A stretch of 36,150 bases of DNA from Solirubrobacterales bacterium (GTDB lineage: Bacteria > Actinomycetota > Thermoleophilia > Solirubrobacterales > Solirubrobacteraceae). Shown piece by piece: positions 18,795 to 31,115 of the stretch. The stretch covers positions 1 to 36,150 of the forward strand of contig JAOPZV010000146.1 in assembly GCA_025963935.1 (NCBI GenBank). The letters are read 5' to 3'. A program made the position numbers and the translations under genes. Position 1 is the first letter of the stretch, and each line of letters opens with the position of its first letter. Below the pieces are notes generated by a model that was given only the letters and a program-made list of their open reading frames with translations, was not told where the DNA came from and ran no database searches.

Positions 18795-19945
18795 GCCGCG
18801 CGGCTGCCGAGCGCCCGACGCAGCTTCGCGAACATCGATTCGTCAGAGCGCAGGTTCTCCGCGGTGAGACTGTCGTTCAGCCGTTCCATCAGCTCGCGCT
18901 GCTCGCCGTCTAGGTTGTGCGGCACCACGACGTTGACGACGACCCGCAGGTCTCCGCGCCGGCCACGGCCGAGAGCCGGCATCCCCTCGCCGCGTACCGT
19001 CATCACCTCGCCGGGCTGCGTGCCCGGCGCCAGCTCGACGGAGGCTGTTCCGTCCAGGGTGGCCACCTCGAGCGTCCCGCCGAGGGCGGCAAGCGGAGCT
19101 GCGACATCCAGCGAGGTGATCAGATGGTCCCCTTCCCGGACGAACCTATCGTCTTCGATGACGTTCACGATGACGTACAGGTCGCCGGCTGGGGCCCCTG
19201 CCTCGCCGGCGTGCCCGCGTCCGCCCAGGCGAATCCTCTGCCCGTCGGCGATGCCCGCAGGCACGTCCACGTCGAGCTCGCGCCGCACCTGCAGACGACC
19301 GCGACCGCGGCACTCGCGGCAGGGCTGGGTGGCGACGCGTCCATCTCCATGACAGGCGTCGCAGGGCATGGTGCGCACCATCTGCCCAAACGGCGTGCGC
19401 GTCACCGCCTGCAGCTGTCCCGCGCCACCACATCGCTCGCATGTCTCGATCGGGGTGCCGGGCTCAGCGCCGTTGCCGTGACAGCGCTCGCAGCGGTCGA
19501 CGGCCTGGAAGGCGATCTCCGTCTTGACGCCGTTCGCGGCTTCGACCAGCTCGATGTCGACTGCGACGCCGATGTCTTCGCCCTGTGCGGGCCCGGCACG
19601 GCCGGTGAACGCGCCGCCGCCGAAGAACGCGTTGAACAGGTCGCCGATCGATCCGAAGCTCTCGAAGTTCGGCGCGTAGCCGCCGGACCTGAGCCCTTCG
19701 TGGCCATAGCGGTCATACGTGGCGCGACGCTCCGCGTCGGACAGGATCTCGTAAGCCTCGGCGGCCGCCTTGAACTTCTCCTCAGCGTCGGGATCGTGTG
19801 CGTTGACGTCCGGATGCAGCTCCCGGGCGAGCTGGCGGAAGGCTTTCTTGATCTCCTGCTCGGAGGCGTCCCGGCCGACGCCGAGCACCTCGTAGGGGTC
19901 GCGCGGCATGCTCTTCTTGTCAGCTCTCGGCATAGGTGTCTTCAA
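18791..19945 (-). CDS. dnaJ: Chaperone DnaJ
   Basis: J domain [33 protein letters not shown] and four CxxCxGxG zinc-finger repeats. Confidence 0.97.
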
Positions 19946-20948
19946 CGAACCGCGACAGCTCGTGCGCCGCCTCCCGCACCGTCGCGATGGCCCCGGCGTA
20001 GTCCATCCGCACCGGGCCGATCACCGATACGGTGCCGAGCTTGCGACGCGGCATCCCATAGCCCGTCGCGACCACGGCGAGCGACCGCATCGCGGGAAGC
20101 TCGTTCTCTTGCCCGATTCGGACGTACACGCCGGGCTCGCCGAGCGCGGCACGCAGGATCCGCAGCAGGGCGACCCTCCGCTCGAGCAGGCCAATCAGCT
20201 CGTTGAACTGCTCGGTGTCCTCGATCTGACCAGTAGAGAACAGCCGCGCTGTACCCTCGAAGTACAGCGAGTCCTCAGCGTCGGCGGCAAGGGTGCCGAA
20301 GGCTGGTGCGAAGCGCGCAAGGAAGTCGAGCTCGGTGACCGACAGGCCAGGCTCGACCAGGCGCTGGTGAATCATGCGTGCGCCAAGCCCCAGGCCGACC
20401 AGGCGCTCGTTGAGATACTCCCCGGCCCAGGCGAGCAGGCCCGGATCGACCGATCGCTCGAAGGTCGCGAGCATCTTCGAGACGCCGCCGGTCGAGGTGA
20501 TGATGACGACGAGCACGACCTGTGGCTGCAGCGCGAGCACCTCGATGCGCCGAATCGTCGCCGTGTTGCGCGAGGGCGCCGAGACGACTGCCAGCAGGTT
20601 GGTCATCTGCGACAGGGTTTCCGTCGTCGCGCGCATCGCCTCATCGACCTCGCGGCGGATCAGCGAGAGCTCGAGCCGAGGTTCCGGCGAAGCAGGAGCC
20701 TGGTCGGCGCTGAGCATGCGGTCGACCAGGTAGCGGTGTCCAGCGTCGGTCGGCACGCGTCCCGCGGACACGTGCGGGTGAGCCAGCAGGCCGTGCTCCT
20801 CGAGCTGGGCGAGCTCGTTACGAACGGTCGAGGGCCCGCAATCGAGCTCCGCGTCGGCGGCGATCACCCGCGAGGCAACCGGCATCCCCGTCCGCAGGTA
20901 GTCGTCGACGACCTTGCACAGAATGCGCTCCTGGCGAGGGGTGAGCAT
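19920..20948 (-). CDS. hrcA: Heat-inducible transcription repressor HrcA
   Basis: [65 protein letters not shown]. Confidence 0.96.
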
Positions 20949-22053: not shown

Positions 22054-22464
22054 CTAGAAGACCGAGTCCTCGCCATCGTCGCCAGCGCCGACGCCCACCA
22101 GGTCACCCTCGTCTGCGGTGCGCTCGCCTGGGCTGTCAAGGAACTGAACGGTGTCGGCCACGATGCTGACCGCTTGACGCTTCTGCTGATCAGTGGTTTC
22201 CCACTCGCGCCAGTCCAGTCGTCCGTCGATCGCGACGCGACTGCCCTTGTGCATGTAGGTGCCTACGTTCTCGCCGGGGGCGCCGTAGACGCTCACGTCG
22301 AAATAGTTGGGGCGCTCGGTGTACTCGCCGTCGGAGTCGCGGCGGCTCGAGTTGCAAGCGATCCTCAGGCTGCACACGCTCGTCCCGGACGGTAACGCGC
22401 GGAGCTCGGGGGCGCGAGTCAAACGGCCGACGAGTACTACACGGTTGATGTTGAACTGGGGCAT
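22054..22464 (-). CDS. ssb: Single-stranded DNA-binding protein
   Basis: INRVVLVGRLTRAPELRALPSGTSVCSLRIACN; acidic tail DDGEDSVF. Confidence 0.95.
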   Translation of the reverse strand: MPQFNINRVVLVGRLTRAPELRALPSGTSVCSLRIACNSSRRDSDGEYTERPNYFDVSVYGAPGENVGTYMHKGSRVAIDGRLDWREWETTDQQKRQAVSIVADTVQFLDSPGERTADEGDLVGVGAGDDGEDSVF

Positions 22465-22509
22465 TGCTGGGTCTCCCTTTGATTCGTGGTTGACCCCCCA
22501 CTGCAGAAG

Positions 22510-23247
22510 CTACGCATCGCTTGGGATGGTTCTCGCGCGCGAGTCTGGCGACCGCTCCTCGGTGGCGAGGCAGTCGAAGGGGACCACCACAATCCGCTCG
22601 CTCGCACCGGCCCTGGCGATTGCGCGGACGAGCGCGCGCTCCACGTCAGCTGGGGCGAGATACAGCACCCCCGATATCCGAGGAGACCTCGCCCACGCGC
22701 GGCATATCTCCTCAAGGCGCCGCGGCGCCTTTATCGTCAGCTCCACCTCGACGGCGATCGGCAACTGGTAGAGCGATTCTTGCGGCCACAGCACGAGGTC
22801 CGGCCTGTGGAGCAGCGGACCACCATCGGGGCCTGTGCCCAGTCGTGCGCTGGCGAGGGCGGCGCCGGCGAGCCGCTCCTCCCGGCGCAGCTCGCGCTCG
22901 CCCACGACGTGGTGTCCCGGATAGCGACCCTCCAGCGCTCCCGCGGCATGCGCGCAGGCGATCGCATGCGGCGCATTTGCGACGCTGATCCGGCACGGGT
23001 CGATCCCGCGCAGGCCGGACGCCCGCATGCCGGCTTGCGTGACCGTGTACAGCGCCGGCTTTCCGGCCAAGGGACGTTGGCTGGTGAGCTGGCGGTCGCG
23101 CTCCGCGGCCACAAGCCTCGCACGGGCCGAGGCGACGGTTCCCCCCTCCCGCGCGGCGAGCGCCTCCGCTGTCACAGCTCCTATGCGGGCAGTCCATCCC
23201 AGGATCTCCACGCGCTCGTCAGACTGCTTGTTGCGTGACTGGACCAT
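22510..23247 (-). CDS. Replication-relaxation-like protein (N-terminal winged-helix region); start at 23245-23247 preferred
   Basis: AGGAGG Shine-Dalgarno immediately upstream of ATG 23247; VTQAGMRASGL, HAAGALEGRYPGHHVVGERELRREER, HRPDLVLWPQ, AVEVELTIKAPRRLEEI resemble the replication-relaxation family. Confidence 0.72.
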   Translation of the reverse strand: MVQSRNKQSDERVEILGWTARIGAVTAEALAAREGGTVASARARLVAAERDRQLTSQRPLAGKPALYTVTQAGMRASGLRGIDPCRISVANAPHAIACAHAAGALEGRYPGHHVVGERELRREERLAGAALASARLGTGPDGGPLLHRPDLVLWPQESLYQLPIAVEVELTIKAPRRLEEICRAWARSPRISGVLYLAPADVERALVRAIARAGASERIVVVPFDCLATEERSPDSRARTIPSDA

Positions 23248-23282
23248 TGGTCCTCCTATCTCTCGTCGTTTCAATGGGTTCT

Positions 23283-24902
23283 TCAGTGGGGCGCCGGGCG
23301 GAGGATCCGTCCGATACGCGCTCCGCCGTCGCGGCCGAGAACGATCACGGCGGCTCGCCCTGGGCTGAGGCTCCGGACCTCGTCGGCATCGAGGATCGGC
23401 TCGCGGGTGCGGGTCTGCGTCGTTCTGCCGTCGCTGTGCCGCGCGACCCTCCAGGCGCCCCTGGTCCCGGCCAGGCTCGCGATCAGCTCCGCGGATGCCG
23501 GCACGACCTGGCGATGTCCGATGAGTACCGAGAGGTTGCCCATCACCTGCTCGAGGAGCCGCTCCCTGCCGGGGGGACGCAGGTCGGAGACCTCCTGGGT
23601 GCCGAGCAGCAGAGATAGCCCCGCGGAGCGCGCACGGCCGAACAGCCGCACGACGTTCTCGGCGGCGACTGCCGAGAACTCGTCGATCACGACGAGGGTC
23701 GGCACCGGTCGCCCCTGCAGGCTCGCGGCAGTCGTCTGCAGGTCCTGCACGATCGCCGCTCCGAGGATCTGCGAGAGCAGCGGGCGGCTGTCGGCCTGGA
23801 GATTGAAATAGACGACCGCCCGCGCCTGCGTCGTCGCAAGCAGATCGAACTCCTCTGCATCATGAGTCCGCGGATCGAGCCAGCGGCCCACATCGGACTC
23901 GGTGAGGATCGCCAATCTGTCGCGGACGCCAGCGAGGTCGCTCCGCTGCCGCGCCGTTAGCGAATCGAGGTAGTCGTACGTCCCGCGTGAACGTGATTCG
24001 GGAAGGCTCCTCGCGAGCGTCTCCAACCGGTCAGGATCGAGGTGCTCGACGATCGCGCGAAGGCTGATCTCAACACCCTCGTCGCGAAGCGCGCGAACCA
24101 CGTGACCGAGGTAGCGCTGAGCCTGGCGCTGGTAGTGAGGCTCCGTGAAGCGCTCACCGGCGAGCACCTTGTCGGCGATCTCGGTCTCACCTCCGTGGGC
24201 GTACGGGTTGTAGATCGACGGGCCGCCCGGGGTCCACTCGAGGAACCTCCGGCCGGCGGCGTGGGCAGCGATGCGCAGGTGCTCGCGCATCTCCACGTCG
24301 CCCTTCGGGTCGACCACCACGGCGCCCAGCCCTTGTTCGATGGCGCGTACCGCCAGCAACGTCTGCGTGACCGTCTTGCCCGAGCCCGTGGCGCCGACGA
24401 CGAGCGTGTGCTTGCCTGCGCCCTCGCCCGCGAAGGGGACCGAGATGGCATGGCCCCGCTCGTCTGTGCCGACGATCAGGTCATCTCCCCTCCGCCAGCT
24501 GTTTCCGCCAGCCGCCTCGCGACGGCGCAGCTCCACGTTCGCGAGAGCCGACCGAAGCACCGAGAACGGCCCACCTCGACGAGCCGCGGCACGAGCGAGG
24601 TCGGCGCCGGCTGCGAGGTCTTCCCGGTGCCAGCGTCGACCGACTTTGCTTGCCGACACGCTCGCGACGAGCAGCGTGGATGTCCAGCCGCCGAGGCTCG
24701 AGCCGATCAGGAGCAGCGGCACCATGGACGTCGCGGCCCAGCCCCAGTGCAGCTGCCTGCTGCGCAGAAGGCGGGCCGTTGAGATGCCGATCAGCAGGCC
24801 GAGCACGCAGTGGACGGTGCTGGCGAGCAACCAGTGGGCGAGTTCTTCCGCCGGCGCGGCCGGACTCGCGGACGCTTCGGGGAATGGGTTCGATGAGGGC
24901 AT
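23283..24902 (-). CDS. VirD4/TraG/TraD-like type IV coupling ATPase with N-terminal TM helices
   Basis: Walker A LVVGATGSGKTVTQTLL, VVDPKGDVEMREHL, Walker B-like TLVVIDEFSAVAAENVVRLFGRARSAGLSLLLGTQEVSDL. Confidence 0.85.
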   Translation of the reverse strand: MPSSNPFPEASASPAAPAEELAHWLLASTVHCVLGLLIGISTARLLRSRQLHWGWAATSMVPLLLIGSSLGGWTSTLLVASVSASKVGRRWHREDLAAGADLARAAARRGGPFSVLRSALANVELRRREAAGGNSWRRGDDLIVGTDERGHAISVPFAGEGAGKHTLVVGATGSGKTVTQTLLAVRAIEQGLGAVVVDPKGDVEMREHLRIAAHAAGRRFLEWTPGGPSIYNPYAHGGETEIADKVLAGERFTEPHYQRQAQRYLGHVVRALRDEGVEISLRAIVEHLDPDRLETLARSLPESRSRGTYDYLDSLTARQRSDLAGVRDRLAILTESDVGRWLDPRTHDAEEFDLLATTQARAVVYFNLQADSRPLLSQILGAAIVQDLQTTAASLQGRPVPTLVVIDEFSAVAAENVVRLFGRARSAGLSLLLGTQEVSDLRPPGRERLLEQVMGNLSVLIGHRQVVPASAELIASLAGTRGAWRVARHSDGRTTQTRTREPILDADEVRSLSPGRAAVIVLGRDGGARIGRILRPAPH

Positions 24903-24923
24903 GGGTGCCGCTCCTTTCGTGCA

Positions 24924-25045
24924 CCGGCCGTGCGGCCGGCTGTCGAGGCCGGCCGAAGCCGGCCAGTGGCTAACGAGCTCTGGCCGACGCGGAGGTCGGC
25001 CGTAGCGGTGTTACGTGTGTGCCGGGCTCGAGCCGTTGAGCCCGG
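24924..25045 (-). promoter_or_regulatory. Array of four consecutive perfect hairpins in the leader of the VirD4-like gene
   Basis: Stems: 24924-24929/24934-24939; 24947-24953/24958-24964 (UUCG loop on minus strand); 24982-24988/24995-25001; 25022-25029/25038-25045. Confidence 0.7.
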
Positions 25046-25098
25046 TCCAGGTTGGGGTGCGCCGCGAGCGAGCCGGCGGGCTGCCAGAGACGCGCGGC

Positions 25099-25914
25099 TC
25101 AGGTCAGGCGGTAGCCAACTCCACGAACGTTGACCACCCAGCGACCCTCACCGTGAAGGCTCAGCTTGCGACGGAGCCTGCTGGCGTGGCTGTCCAGTGT
25201 CCGGGTGGAGTCGCCGCAGGCGTAACCCCAGATGGCGAGCAGCAGCTCGCTCTTGGCGAATACTCGGCGGGGATCACGAGCGAGATGACAGAGCAGCTCG
25301 AACTCGAGCCGGCGCAGTGTCACCGGCCACCCGTGGAGGCTGACGGAACGAGCTCGCGAGTCGATCGTGAGCTCCCCTATCTCGAGCCGCCGGCGCGCGA
25401 GCGGATGCACCTCGGAGCGCCGCAGAACCGCGCGGAGGCGTGCGCGGAGCTCCAGGTAGCTCGCCGGGCGGGCGAGAAAATCATCAGCACCGGTCTCAAA
25501 GGCACGGAGCACGTCCAGTTCGTGTGCCAGATCACCGACGACGATCGCCGGTACTGTCGAGTCCCACATCATGCAGCGGCTGCGCGGTTGTCGTATCTCC
25601 GTAAGCAGCCGCAGCGCGCCGTGTGGACCATCCACCTGGCCGAGCACAGCGAGCCTCGGTGCCGCGGCCGCGGCCAGCACACGAGCGTGCTCGGCCGTCA
25701 ATGCGAGCTTGCTGAGATAGCCGTCCGCGGCCAGCTGCGCGACTATCCCGCGCCCCATCTCTCCATCTGACTCGACCACGAGGATCGGCCGCTGTGCGAG
25801 TCGGTCCTCGCCGGCGCACGGTCCCAGCTCGACACCGCCGGACGGGCATGCACCAGGATCCGGGCACGGGAGGGACGACGGCGGCGTGGCGAGCTCGAGC
25901 GTTGCTCGCGTCAT
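25099..25914 (-). CDS. OmpR/PhoB-type winged-helix response regulator with degenerate receiver domain (ATG 25912-25914)
   Basis: Receiver-like ILVVESDGEMGRGIVAQLAADGY...ETGADDFLARPASYLELRARLRAVLRR plus wHTH KSELLLAIWGYACGDSTRTLDSHASRLRRKLSLHGEGRWVVNVRGVGYRL. Confidence 0.88.
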   Translation of the reverse strand: MTRATLELATPPSSLPCPDPGACPSGGVELGPCAGEDRLAQRPILVVESDGEMGRGIVAQLAADGYLSKLALTAEHARVLAAAAAPRLAVLGQVDGPHGALRLLTEIRQPRSRCMMWDSTVPAIVVGDLAHELDVLRAFETGADDFLARPASYLELRARLRAVLRRSEVHPLARRRLEIGELTIDSRARSVSLHGWPVTLRRLEFELLCHLARDPRRVFAKSELLLAIWGYACGDSTRTLDSHASRLRRKLSLHGEGRWVVNVRGVGYRLT

Positions 25915-26867
25915 GGCACTTCCACCTCGCGTGGACTGAGGCCGAGCCCGCGACGAGCGATGAGCGCAAGTACGTCGGTGTGAACCCAAGGCGTCGGGAT
26001 GCCCTGACCCGCCTCGGGCAGCAGCCCCAGTCGGCGAGCCAGCCAGCTGGTCTCGCCACTCTCGTTTCCTCGGCGGTCCCGCTTGACCCGGCCGCACCTG
26101 AGCGCGATCTCGCTCATGCTCAGCTGCTGGCGATCGGTGCTCGCGAGGACCGCTTCTCGGAGACACCGGTTGAGGACGATGGGGCTGTTCTGAACCCGAG
26201 TGAGCTCGGCTCGCAGGACGGTTGTCGAGACCTCCGGGTCGCAGTCGTGCAGCGCTAGCGCCCGGATGGAAAGGCCTCGCACAGGCTCATAGCTCTCCAG
26301 GGCAGCGACGGCCTCGCGCACACTGACGATGGCGTTGCATGCCGGTGCCGGCGTGCCGTGCCGCTGCCAGCGCAGCTCCGGGATGGACATGCCGGTCTGC
26401 ACGCGGTCAAGGCGGTAGCGATACCCGCGTTGATCAGACGGTTCCCGGTCAGCCAGCAGAGTGGCCGCAGAGAGCTGCACCTGTTCCTCTTCAGCGAGCG
26501 GAACGGTACGCGCGTCGCGCGGCGTCAGCGCCCGGCAGACAACGCGCCTGTCGCGTACATCGTCGATGTAACGAAGCGAGACGATGGCAGCGTTGTCAAC
26601 GGGCTCGTCCGCCGCGAGGTGCGCCACCAGCCGGCGATCGCCTTTCGTTGTGGCGTCTCTGTCCACGACCAGAACGCTCCCGCCCGCTCCCGGACATGCA
26701 TGGAGCTCGCGAGGATCACCGCGCCAGTCGACGTAGCGTCCGAGGAGACGGCCCTCGTGGCCGGCCGCACGGCGCCGAGCGGCGGCTTGATGGGGCCCGC
26801 TCGAGCCGGCGCCTCGCCGCTTGGCCGCTCGGCCGGCTTGCGAATGCTTTGAGAGGGATGGCGTCAT
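25911..26867 (-). CDS. Uncharacterised 318-aa protein, possible C-terminal HTH; ATGA overlap with the response regulator
   Basis: Uninterrupted ORF, 4-bp stop/start overlap with downstream gene; LSMSEIALRCGRVKRDRRG...SWLARRLGL looks HTH-like. Confidence 0.7.
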   Translation of the reverse strand: MTPSLSKHSQAGRAAKRRGAGSSGPHQAAARRRAAGHEGRLLGRYVDWRGDPRELHACPGAGGSVLVVDRDATTKGDRRLVAHLAADEPVDNAAIVSLRYIDDVRDRRVVCRALTPRDARTVPLAEEEQVQLSAATLLADREPSDQRGYRYRLDRVQTGMSIPELRWQRHGTPAPACNAIVSVREAVAALESYEPVRGLSIRALALHDCDPEVSTTVLRAELTRVQNSPIVLNRCLREAVLASTDRQQLSMSEIALRCGRVKRDRRGNESGETSWLARRLGLLPEAGQGIPTPWVHTDVLALIARRGLGLSPREVEVP

Positions 26868-26982
26868 GGGTGTCTCCTGGCCGCTGGGTTCGTGGCACCG
26901 CCGAGCAGCGATGCGGGACTTGTGACGGCGTGCTTGTAGGAGCGCGAACGCCTTGCGTCAAGCGGCGTCGGGCGACATCGAT

Positions 26983-27035
26983 TGACGTTCCACAGAGCTC
27001 CGAGAACCCCTTAAGGGGGTCTCGGAAAAACGTCA
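26983..27035. promoter_or_regulatory. Large dyad: 26-bp near-perfect palindrome nested in an outer TGACGTT/AACGTCA inverted repeat
   Basis: CCGAGAACCCCTTAAGGGGGTCTCGG at 27000-27025 (12 of 13 pairs); outer arms 26983-26989 and 27029-27035. Confidence 0.6.
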
Positions 27036-27221
27036 GGTGAAGGAAGCTGCCAGCGAAAGTTGGCGCGGAAACGCTCGTCACCCAGCCGCCGGCGGGGGAG
27101 CGGCGAAGATCACTGGCGGACTGCTGAGACGCTCATCGCTGATGAGCTGTCGACTGCGCGGCGTAGGCCGCTGGCACGGGGAGGGCTCAGATGGGGACCG
27201 TGAGACTAGCGGCCAGGCCGC
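27036..27221 (+). ncRNA. Candidate structured RNA / long 5' leader of unknown class
   Basis: Three-way-junction-like GGTGA/TCACC with two GAAA tetraloop hairpins, then GCTCATC-gct-GATGAGC, GCGGC-gtag-GCCGC and other hairpins; no convincing ORF. Confidence 0.3.
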
Positions 27222-30611: not shown

Positions 30612-31115
30612 ATGCCAGCGACAATTGTCGAGGAGACGTGCAGCGGTGCCGAGCAGGAGCTGACGCAACCCGCCGGTTTCCTGCTCGCGCAGCTTGGGCG
30701 GGCGATGACTCGTCGCTACCGCTGCGCGCTGTCGCCGATCGGGCTGAAGCCACGCGAGACCCATGCATTGCTGAGGCTGCGCGACGGTGGCGCGATGAGC
30801 CAGCAGGCTCTCGGCGTGGCGCTGGACATCGACGCGAGCAATCTAGTAGCGCTGCTGAACGATCTCGAATCAGAGAGCTTGATCAGCCGTCGGCGAGACC
30901 CCGCGGACAGGCGCCGTCACGTCGTGGAGGTCTCCAAGCGAGGCACGAAGCTCCTGAGCGAAGTGGAGCACGCAGCTGCCGAGGTCGAGGACGACTTCTT
31001 CGACGCGCTCGATGACGACGAGCGCGTCGCGTTGCAAGGTCTGCTCTCGCGCGTTGCGCGCAGCGCCGATGTGCCCTCACCGGCCGAGATGGCCGGTGAG
31101 GACAGCGCGTGCTGA
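30612..31115 (+). CDS. MarR family transcriptional regulator (ATG 30612)
   Basis: LKPRETHALLRLRDGGAMSQQALGVALDIDASNLVALLNDLESESLISRRRDPADRRRHVVEVSKRG. Confidence 0.93.
   Translation: MPATIVEETCSGAEQELTQPAGFLLAQLGRAMTRRYRCALSPIGLKPRETHALLRLRDGGAMSQQALGVALDIDASNLVALLNDLESESLISRRRDPADRRRHVVEVSKRGTKLLSEVEHAAAEVEDDFFDALDDDERVALQGLLSRVARSADVPSPAEMAGEDSAC
31075..31101 (+). terminator. Perfect 11-bp hairpin inside the 3' end of marR
   Basis: CCTCACCGGCC-GAGAT-GGCCGGTGAGG, 12 nt before the TGA codon. Confidence 0.45.

What the first reader, a model, noticed from the sequence alone, without database searches (positions are those of the whole stretch)
22054..26867. Conjugation-like gene block without relaxase or integrase: ssb, replication-relaxation-like protein, VirD4/TraG-like ATPase, degenerate response regulator, uncharacterised coupled protein
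Five consecutive minus-strand genes combine ssDNA handling (SSB), a plasmid/ICE-type replication-relaxation-like protein, a membrane-anchored coupling ATPase and a dedicated regulator pair, embedded among core genes (hrcA/dnaJ on one side). No relaxase, VirB4, integrase or att-like repeat is visible in the window. It could be a domesticated DNA-translocation module, a relic of an ICE, or a chromosomal DNA-transfer or DNA-processing system. Gene family calls rest on motif recognition; the functional grouping is inference.
Basis: partly seen in the sequence, partly recalled or inferred. Interest (0 to 1): 0.8.

Follow-up and report, generated by a model that had tools for sequence, protein, structure and literature searches.

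The report
Orphaned chromosomal conjugation DNA-processing module
The five genes are the DNA-handling half (a nuclease-type relaxase candidate, a DNA pump, an ssDNA-binding protein and two regulators) of a mating machine that a genus of soil actinobacteria keeps at two fixed places in its chromosome; this genome has lost the pore half, and the inherited chromosomal setting, not the kind of machine, is what is new.

Summary
The five genes are real and in the stated order. The "replication-relaxation-like" protein (RRX) is a divergent relative of MOBC relaxases: winged helix plus an invariant PD…ExE…K motif, aligning with a PF13814 domain at 96.6% probability. The block sits at the same hrcA–dnaJ site throughout the genus and in two further genera. 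The ATPase tree follows the hrcA+dnaJ tree better than chance. Most of these genomes also carry a Tcp-type type IV secretion pore at a second fixed site (lon–BrkB–[pore]–FdR). In a sister family ATPase, RRX, SSB, pore and an integrase form one ICE-like cluster. In the window's own genome the pore genes are missing from the lon site although flanks and first genes remain; the closest relative keeps them. The operon has a conserved promoter with a 28-bp palindrome and an upstream box. Best reading: the DNA-processing arm of an ICE-derived, chromosomally fixed, split conjugation system, orphaned here by pore loss. Nicking, oriT and DNA transfer are inferred, not shown. P5 has no known fold.

The parts
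25911..26867 (-). P5, 318 aa, first gene of the operon; conserved C-terminal region; proposed DNA-binding regulator or oriT accessory protein (inference)
   Evidence: ATG preceded by AGGAG; paralogues in integrase/ArdC/ParB islands
25099..25914 (-). RR, 271 aa OmpR/MtrA-type DNA-binding protein with a pseudo-receiver (phospho-acceptor Asp replaced by Gly); overlaps P5 by 4 nt
23283..24902 (-). ATP, 539 aa VirD4/TraG-type coupling ATPase; one predicted N-terminal membrane helix, Walker A GATGSGKT at 170, Walker B LVVIDE at 403
22510..23247 (-). RRX, 245 aa MOBC-like relaxase candidate: winged helix plus PD-(D/E)XK-like domain, residues D150, E167, E169, K173 (an in-frame TTG start at 23274 is also possible)
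22054..22464 (-). SSB, 136 aa single-strand DNA-binding protein
   Evidence: PF00436 5.7e-32
26999..27026 (-). conserved 28-bp palindrome TCCGAGACCCCCTTAAGGGGTTCTCGGA upstream of P5; candidate operator, or part of oriT
27057..27076 (-). conserved box GAGCGTTTCCGCGCCAACTT upstream of the palindrome
26933..26961 (-). operon promoter TTGACG-N17-TACAAG; its -35 element starts 63 nt after the palindrome starts
   Evidence: found by conservation; the simple consensus scan does not report it
19920..20948 (-). hrcA, anchor gene of the conserved site (context, not part of the system)

Best explanation
The block is an operon encoding the DNA-processing and substrate-delivery arm of an ICE-derived conjugation system that became fixed in the chromosome, lost its integrase and was split over two sites. 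Proposed mechanism: RRX binds a transfer origin through its winged helix and nicks one strand by PD-(D/E)XK chemistry, like MOBC relaxases. The membrane-anchored VirD4-like hexamer (ATP) takes the DNA and pumps it to a Tcp-type pore encoded at lon-BrkB/FdR. SSB protects the strand. P5 and the phosphorylation-independent RR control the operon through the box/palindrome/promoter unit. In this genome the pore genes have been deleted, so the module is orphaned: it can act only with another element's pore, or it is decaying, or it serves a pore-independent DNA role. Shown: gene content, motifs, synteny, largely vertical ATPase tree, pore loss at the expected site, conserved promoter unit. Inferred: nicking, oriT, transfer, the roles of P5 and RR, and use of the chromosome as substrate.
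For: RRX: PD...ExE...K invariant in divergent homologues (27 sequences, 28); confident fold, pLDDT 92.7, wHTH plus alpha/beta domain; homology to a PF13814 domain, probability 96.6%, E 6.6e-10 (that domain is above Pfam's cut-off). PF13814 = MOBC relaxase (PMC5357655) with a restriction-endonuclease active site (PMC12857230). Fixed site: P5-(RR)-ATP-RRX-SSB-maoA-maoB-hrcA-dnaJ in the genus and in G220 and G121. ATP tree shares 8 of 15 splits with hrcA+dnaJ, random maximum 4. Pore TcpC-TcpE-VirB4-SLT at lon-BrkB/FdR in same-genus genomes and beside FdR in G220; VirB4 in 20 of 24 genus genomes (one of them only a distant copy), plus pore genes in G309 at a contig end. Co-occurrence of pore and ATP: 19/1/1/3, Fisher p 0.008. 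One ICE-like cluster with integrase in G029 (L045+L058). Own genome: FdR...c6-BrkB-lon contiguous without the pore and no VirB4 or TcpC elsewhere; closest relative G309 keeps TcpC-TcpE. In G290 the pore deletion fused c6 to SLT, and ATP/RRX are also gone. In 8 pore-bearing genomes no MOBF or MOBP relaxase was found.
Against: G305 keeps the pore without ATP/RRX and G000 the reverse, and genera g13 and g14 keep RRX-ATP without a strong VirB4 hit, so the halves are not strictly coupled. RRX has no direct Pfam hit. The fold search gives only the winged helix clearly. RRX, P5, SSB and several pore gene trees agree with the core tree only weakly. No oriT was identified. The Fisher test ignores shared ancestry. 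dN/dS 0.19-0.23 for ATP, RRX and P5 is two to three times that of hrcA and covers time before the pore was lost. The own assembly is 82.5% complete, so an absence elsewhere is not proof.
Confidence: 0.7

Rival explanations
1. A mobilisation module (IME-like: VirD4 plus MOBC relaxase) that rides on the pores of passing elements; in this genus the integrase was lost and the site became fixed by chance.
For: Streptococcal IMEs with exactly VirD4 + Rel_PF13814 and no pore exist (PMC5357655). RRX-ATP beside an integrase without a pore within 20 kb in G274 and G047. G000, g13 and g14 keep RRX-ATP without a pore.
Against: The chromosomal pore and ATP co-occur in 19 of 24 genus genomes, and both are absent in G290 and G303. 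The site is unchanged across three genera and no integrase flanks it in most genomes.
Confidence: 0.3
2. A pore-independent DNA-processing, repair or defence device: a nuclease plus translocase pair, like HerA-NurA.
For: RRX-ATP is kept alone at a fixed core-gene site (dagK/relA-recJ-secDF) in genus g14 and here after pore loss. ATP matches PADLOC mad8 at 1.9e-18.
Against: The mad8 model also matches PhoH in the same window, so it is unspecific, and no MADS partner system is present. The N-terminal membrane helix, TraG-D_C domain and linkage to a pore in G029 and G065 point to conjugation.
Confidence: 0.15
3. A decaying ICE relic without function in this genome.
For: Pore deleted here; RR, FUS, ATP/RRX lost piecemeal in relatives; dN/dS two to three times that of neighbours.
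Against: All five ORFs are intact with catalytic motifs and promoter unit preserved, and the four compared (SSB, RRX, ATP, P5) have dN/dS well below 1.
Confidence: 0.2

Closest known systems
MOBC relaxases with their VirD4 partner (pAD1 TraX, CloDF13 MobC/MobB, streptococcal IME class 8)
   Same: winged helix plus PD-(D/E)XK-type domain; relaxase gene next to a VirD4-type ATPase gene
   Different: sequence too divergent for the Pfam model; chromosomal at a fixed core-gene site, no integrase or plasmid; adds SSB, pseudo-receiver regulator and P5
Tcp-type (FA/FATA) type IV secretion systems of Gram-positive conjugative elements (pCW3, Tn916 group)
   Same: TcpC, TcpE, VirB4-type ATPase and lytic transglycosylase in the pore locus of relatives
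   Different: pore and DNA-processing genes lie at two separate fixed chromosomal sites; pore lost in the window's genome
Chromosomal T4SS of Patescibacteria (PMC12102498)
   Same: chromosomal, lineage-specific, monoderm-type pore not linked to an element
   Different: there most clusters lack a relaxase; here a MOBC candidate and coupling protein are kept with the system
Thermus thermophilus TdtA/ICEth1 transjugation (PMC5365140)
   Same: translocase plus nuclease that export chromosomal DNA (shown there by genetics, only proposed here)
   Different: TdtA is HerA-like, with NurA and a type II enzyme, on an excising element with integrase

Membership tests
MOBC relaxase (PF13814) | PD-(D/E)XK-type active-site motif | tested here: met
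   D150, E167, E169, K173 invariant in 28 homologues
MOBC relaxase (PF13814) | homology to PF13814 | tested here: met
   profile-profile 96.6%, E 6.6e-10 against a PF13814-positive domain
MOBC relaxase (PF13814) | direct match above the curated cut-off | tested here: not met
   no Pfam hit; NCBIfam MobC_subf 16.3 bits against 200. Hence 'MOBC-like', not a filed member
MOBC relaxase (PF13814) | site-specific nicking at an oriT | not testable with these tools
   needs biochemistry
VirD4/TraG coupling protein | TraG-D_C / TrwB domains above cut-off, Walker A and B | tested here: met
   34.7 and 31.2 bits; GATGSGKT, LVVIDE
VirD4/TraG coupling protein | N-terminal membrane anchor | tested here: met
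   hydropathy peak 22-40; simple scale only
Integrative conjugative element | integrase and att site with the module | tested here: not met
   no integrase among the annotated window genes; no tRNA
Integrative conjugative element | mating pore on the same element | tested here: not met
   pore at a separate site in relatives, deleted in this genome
Functional response regulator | phospho-acceptor Asp | tested here: not met
   Gly at residue 92, all 13 homologues
MADS defence system | mad8 with the other mad genes | tested here: not met
   mad8 model also hits PhoH; the only other hit is the PrmA-like gene to mad2

The most novel reading that the evidence does not exclude
A genus-wide, vertically inherited conjugation machine whose natural cargo is the host chromosome: relaxase and coupling protein fixed at hrcA, pore fixed at lon, giving Hfr-like gene exchange between soil actinobacteria as a host trait and not a mobile-element trait.
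Probability: 0.3. Interest if true: 0.88.

Novelty: new variant of a known kind. Interest (0 to 1): 0.62.

Why it matters
Conjugation is normally a property of plasmids and ICEs. Here a whole genus keeps the machine at two fixed chromosomal sites with a relaxase candidate, which makes the question whether bacteria domesticate conjugation for their own gene exchange directly testable. It also offers natural knock-outs (pore only, module only, neither) for comparison.

Tried and rejected
oriT search by repeats: only the palindrome unit stood out, equally explained as an operator. RRX and P5 by tblastn in plasmids: no match. CloDF13 record for a direct MobC comparison: the record held lists no MobC, and no ORF was used. 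P5 fold against PDB and viral models: nothing convincing. Defence reading by PADLOC: unspecific. Francia 2013 on TraX is not held, so a residue-by-residue comparison with TraX was not made. Box motif shared with the pore promoter: no convincing hit.

Full report
1. What is there. The window is contig C281 of a 2.59-Mb, 301-contig, 82.5%-complete Solirubrobacterales genome (relatives named). Five minus-strand genes lie at 22054-26867. In order of transcription: P5 (318 aa, no family), RR (OmpR/MtrA type), ATP (VirD4/TraG type), RRX, SSB. P5 and RR overlap by four bases. The neighbours downstream are two MaoC-like genes, hrcA and dnaJ.

2. RRX is a relaxase candidate. It has no Pfam hit and a weak NCBIfam MobC-family hit. 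Its homologues keep PD…ExE…K without exception in the 28-sequence alignment. The predicted fold (pLDDT 92.7) is a winged helix followed by an alpha/beta domain with the acidic residues at consecutive strands. It aligns over 204 columns with the C-terminal domain of a large fused protein, FUS, at 96.6% probability, and that domain is PF13814 above cut-off. PF13814 is the MOBC relaxase family (PMC5357655), described as restriction-endonuclease-like, with a winged helix in pAD1 TraX (PMC12857230). Fold search against PDB found the winged helix clearly and the second domain not convincingly. FUS itself, a VirD4-like ATPase joined to a PF13814 domain, lies next to the block in most relatives and on contig C24 here; in several FUS proteins the PD aspartate is lost, so RRX is the better candidate for the active enzyme.

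3. A fixed chromosomal site. P5-(RR)-ATP-RRX-SSB-maoA-maoB-hrcA-dnaJ recurs in the genus and in two further genera, G220 and G121. In G246 the hrcA end is inverted; in G305 and G299 ATP and RRX are gone while P5, RR and SSB remain; in G186, G208 and a few others the ATPase is a divergent version at the same site. ATP trees share 8 of 15 splits with hrcA+dnaJ against a random maximum of 4; distances correlate 0.86 within the genus. RRX, P5, SSB and pore trees agree less well, so some exchange is likely.

4. The other half. Genomes of the genus carry TcpC, TcpE, a VirB4-type ATPase, a large membrane protein and a transglycosylase between lon/BrkB/c6 and a ferredoxin-reductase-like gene. VirB4 was found in 20 of 24 genomes (one of these, G290, has only a distant copy elsewhere), and G309 has TcpC-TcpE at a contig end. 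In the sister-family genome G029 integrase, ATP, RRX, SSB, transglycosylase, VirB4, TcpE and TcpC form one cluster (L045+L058), and in G198 the pore operon ends with FUS. These link the two halves.

5. Loss in this genome. Contig C243 (L163) reads FdR-x-x-c6-BrkB-lon with the pore missing, while the closest relative G309 keeps BrkB-c6-TcpC-c27-TcpE. No VirB4 or TcpC was found elsewhere. In G290 the deletion left a c6-SLT fusion and ATP/RRX are gone. Counting pore and ATP over 24 genomes gives 19 both, 1 pore only, 1 ATP only, 3 neither (Fisher p 0.008, 0.03 without G299), without correction for ancestry.

6. Control region. Upstream of P5 a box, a palindrome of about 26-28 bp and a TTGACG-N17-TACAAG promoter are conserved, with 62-66 bases from palindrome start to -35 in most genomes. 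RR's phospho-acceptor is Gly throughout, so control by a kinase is unlikely. P5 paralogues sit in islands with integrase, ArdC, ParB and SSB, which points to a mobile-element origin of P5.

7. Verdict. ICE-derived, chromosomally fixed, split conjugation system; DNA-processing arm in the window, pore lost in this genome. Canonical relaxases are patchy in the genus (TrwC 12 of 24, MobP 2 of 24), so RRX (and FUS) are the only relaxase candidates found in eight pore-bearing genomes, among the families tested. Enzyme activity, oriT and DNA transfer were not shown.

Noticed in passing
G000 contig C24:2277-6200 (L057): FUS: 1307-aa protein joining a VirD4-like ATPase with a C-terminal PF13814 domain; two predicted membrane helices; next to the block in most relatives but elsewhere here.
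   Followed up: partly
L046-L051 (genus g14): RRX-ATP pair alone at a fixed core-gene site beside dagK, relA, recJ and secDF, without a strong VirB4 hit in the genomes checked.
   Followed up: partly
L157-L160, L162, L168: P5 paralogues in islands with tyrosine integrase, ArdC-like, ParB-like and SSB genes; five P5 matches in G246, one of them cut by a contig end.
   Followed up: partly
L166 4847-5338: Deletion scar in G290: start of the sigma-like c6 gene fused in frame to the end of the transglycosylase gene.
   Followed up: yes
L052 1726-7463: Several RRX-like copies, one in a protein of 606 aa, upstream of P5 in G186.
   Followed up: no
window 30612-31115: 167-aa plus-strand ORF with a weak match to a CARF-type PADLOC model (7e-4).
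   Followed up: no
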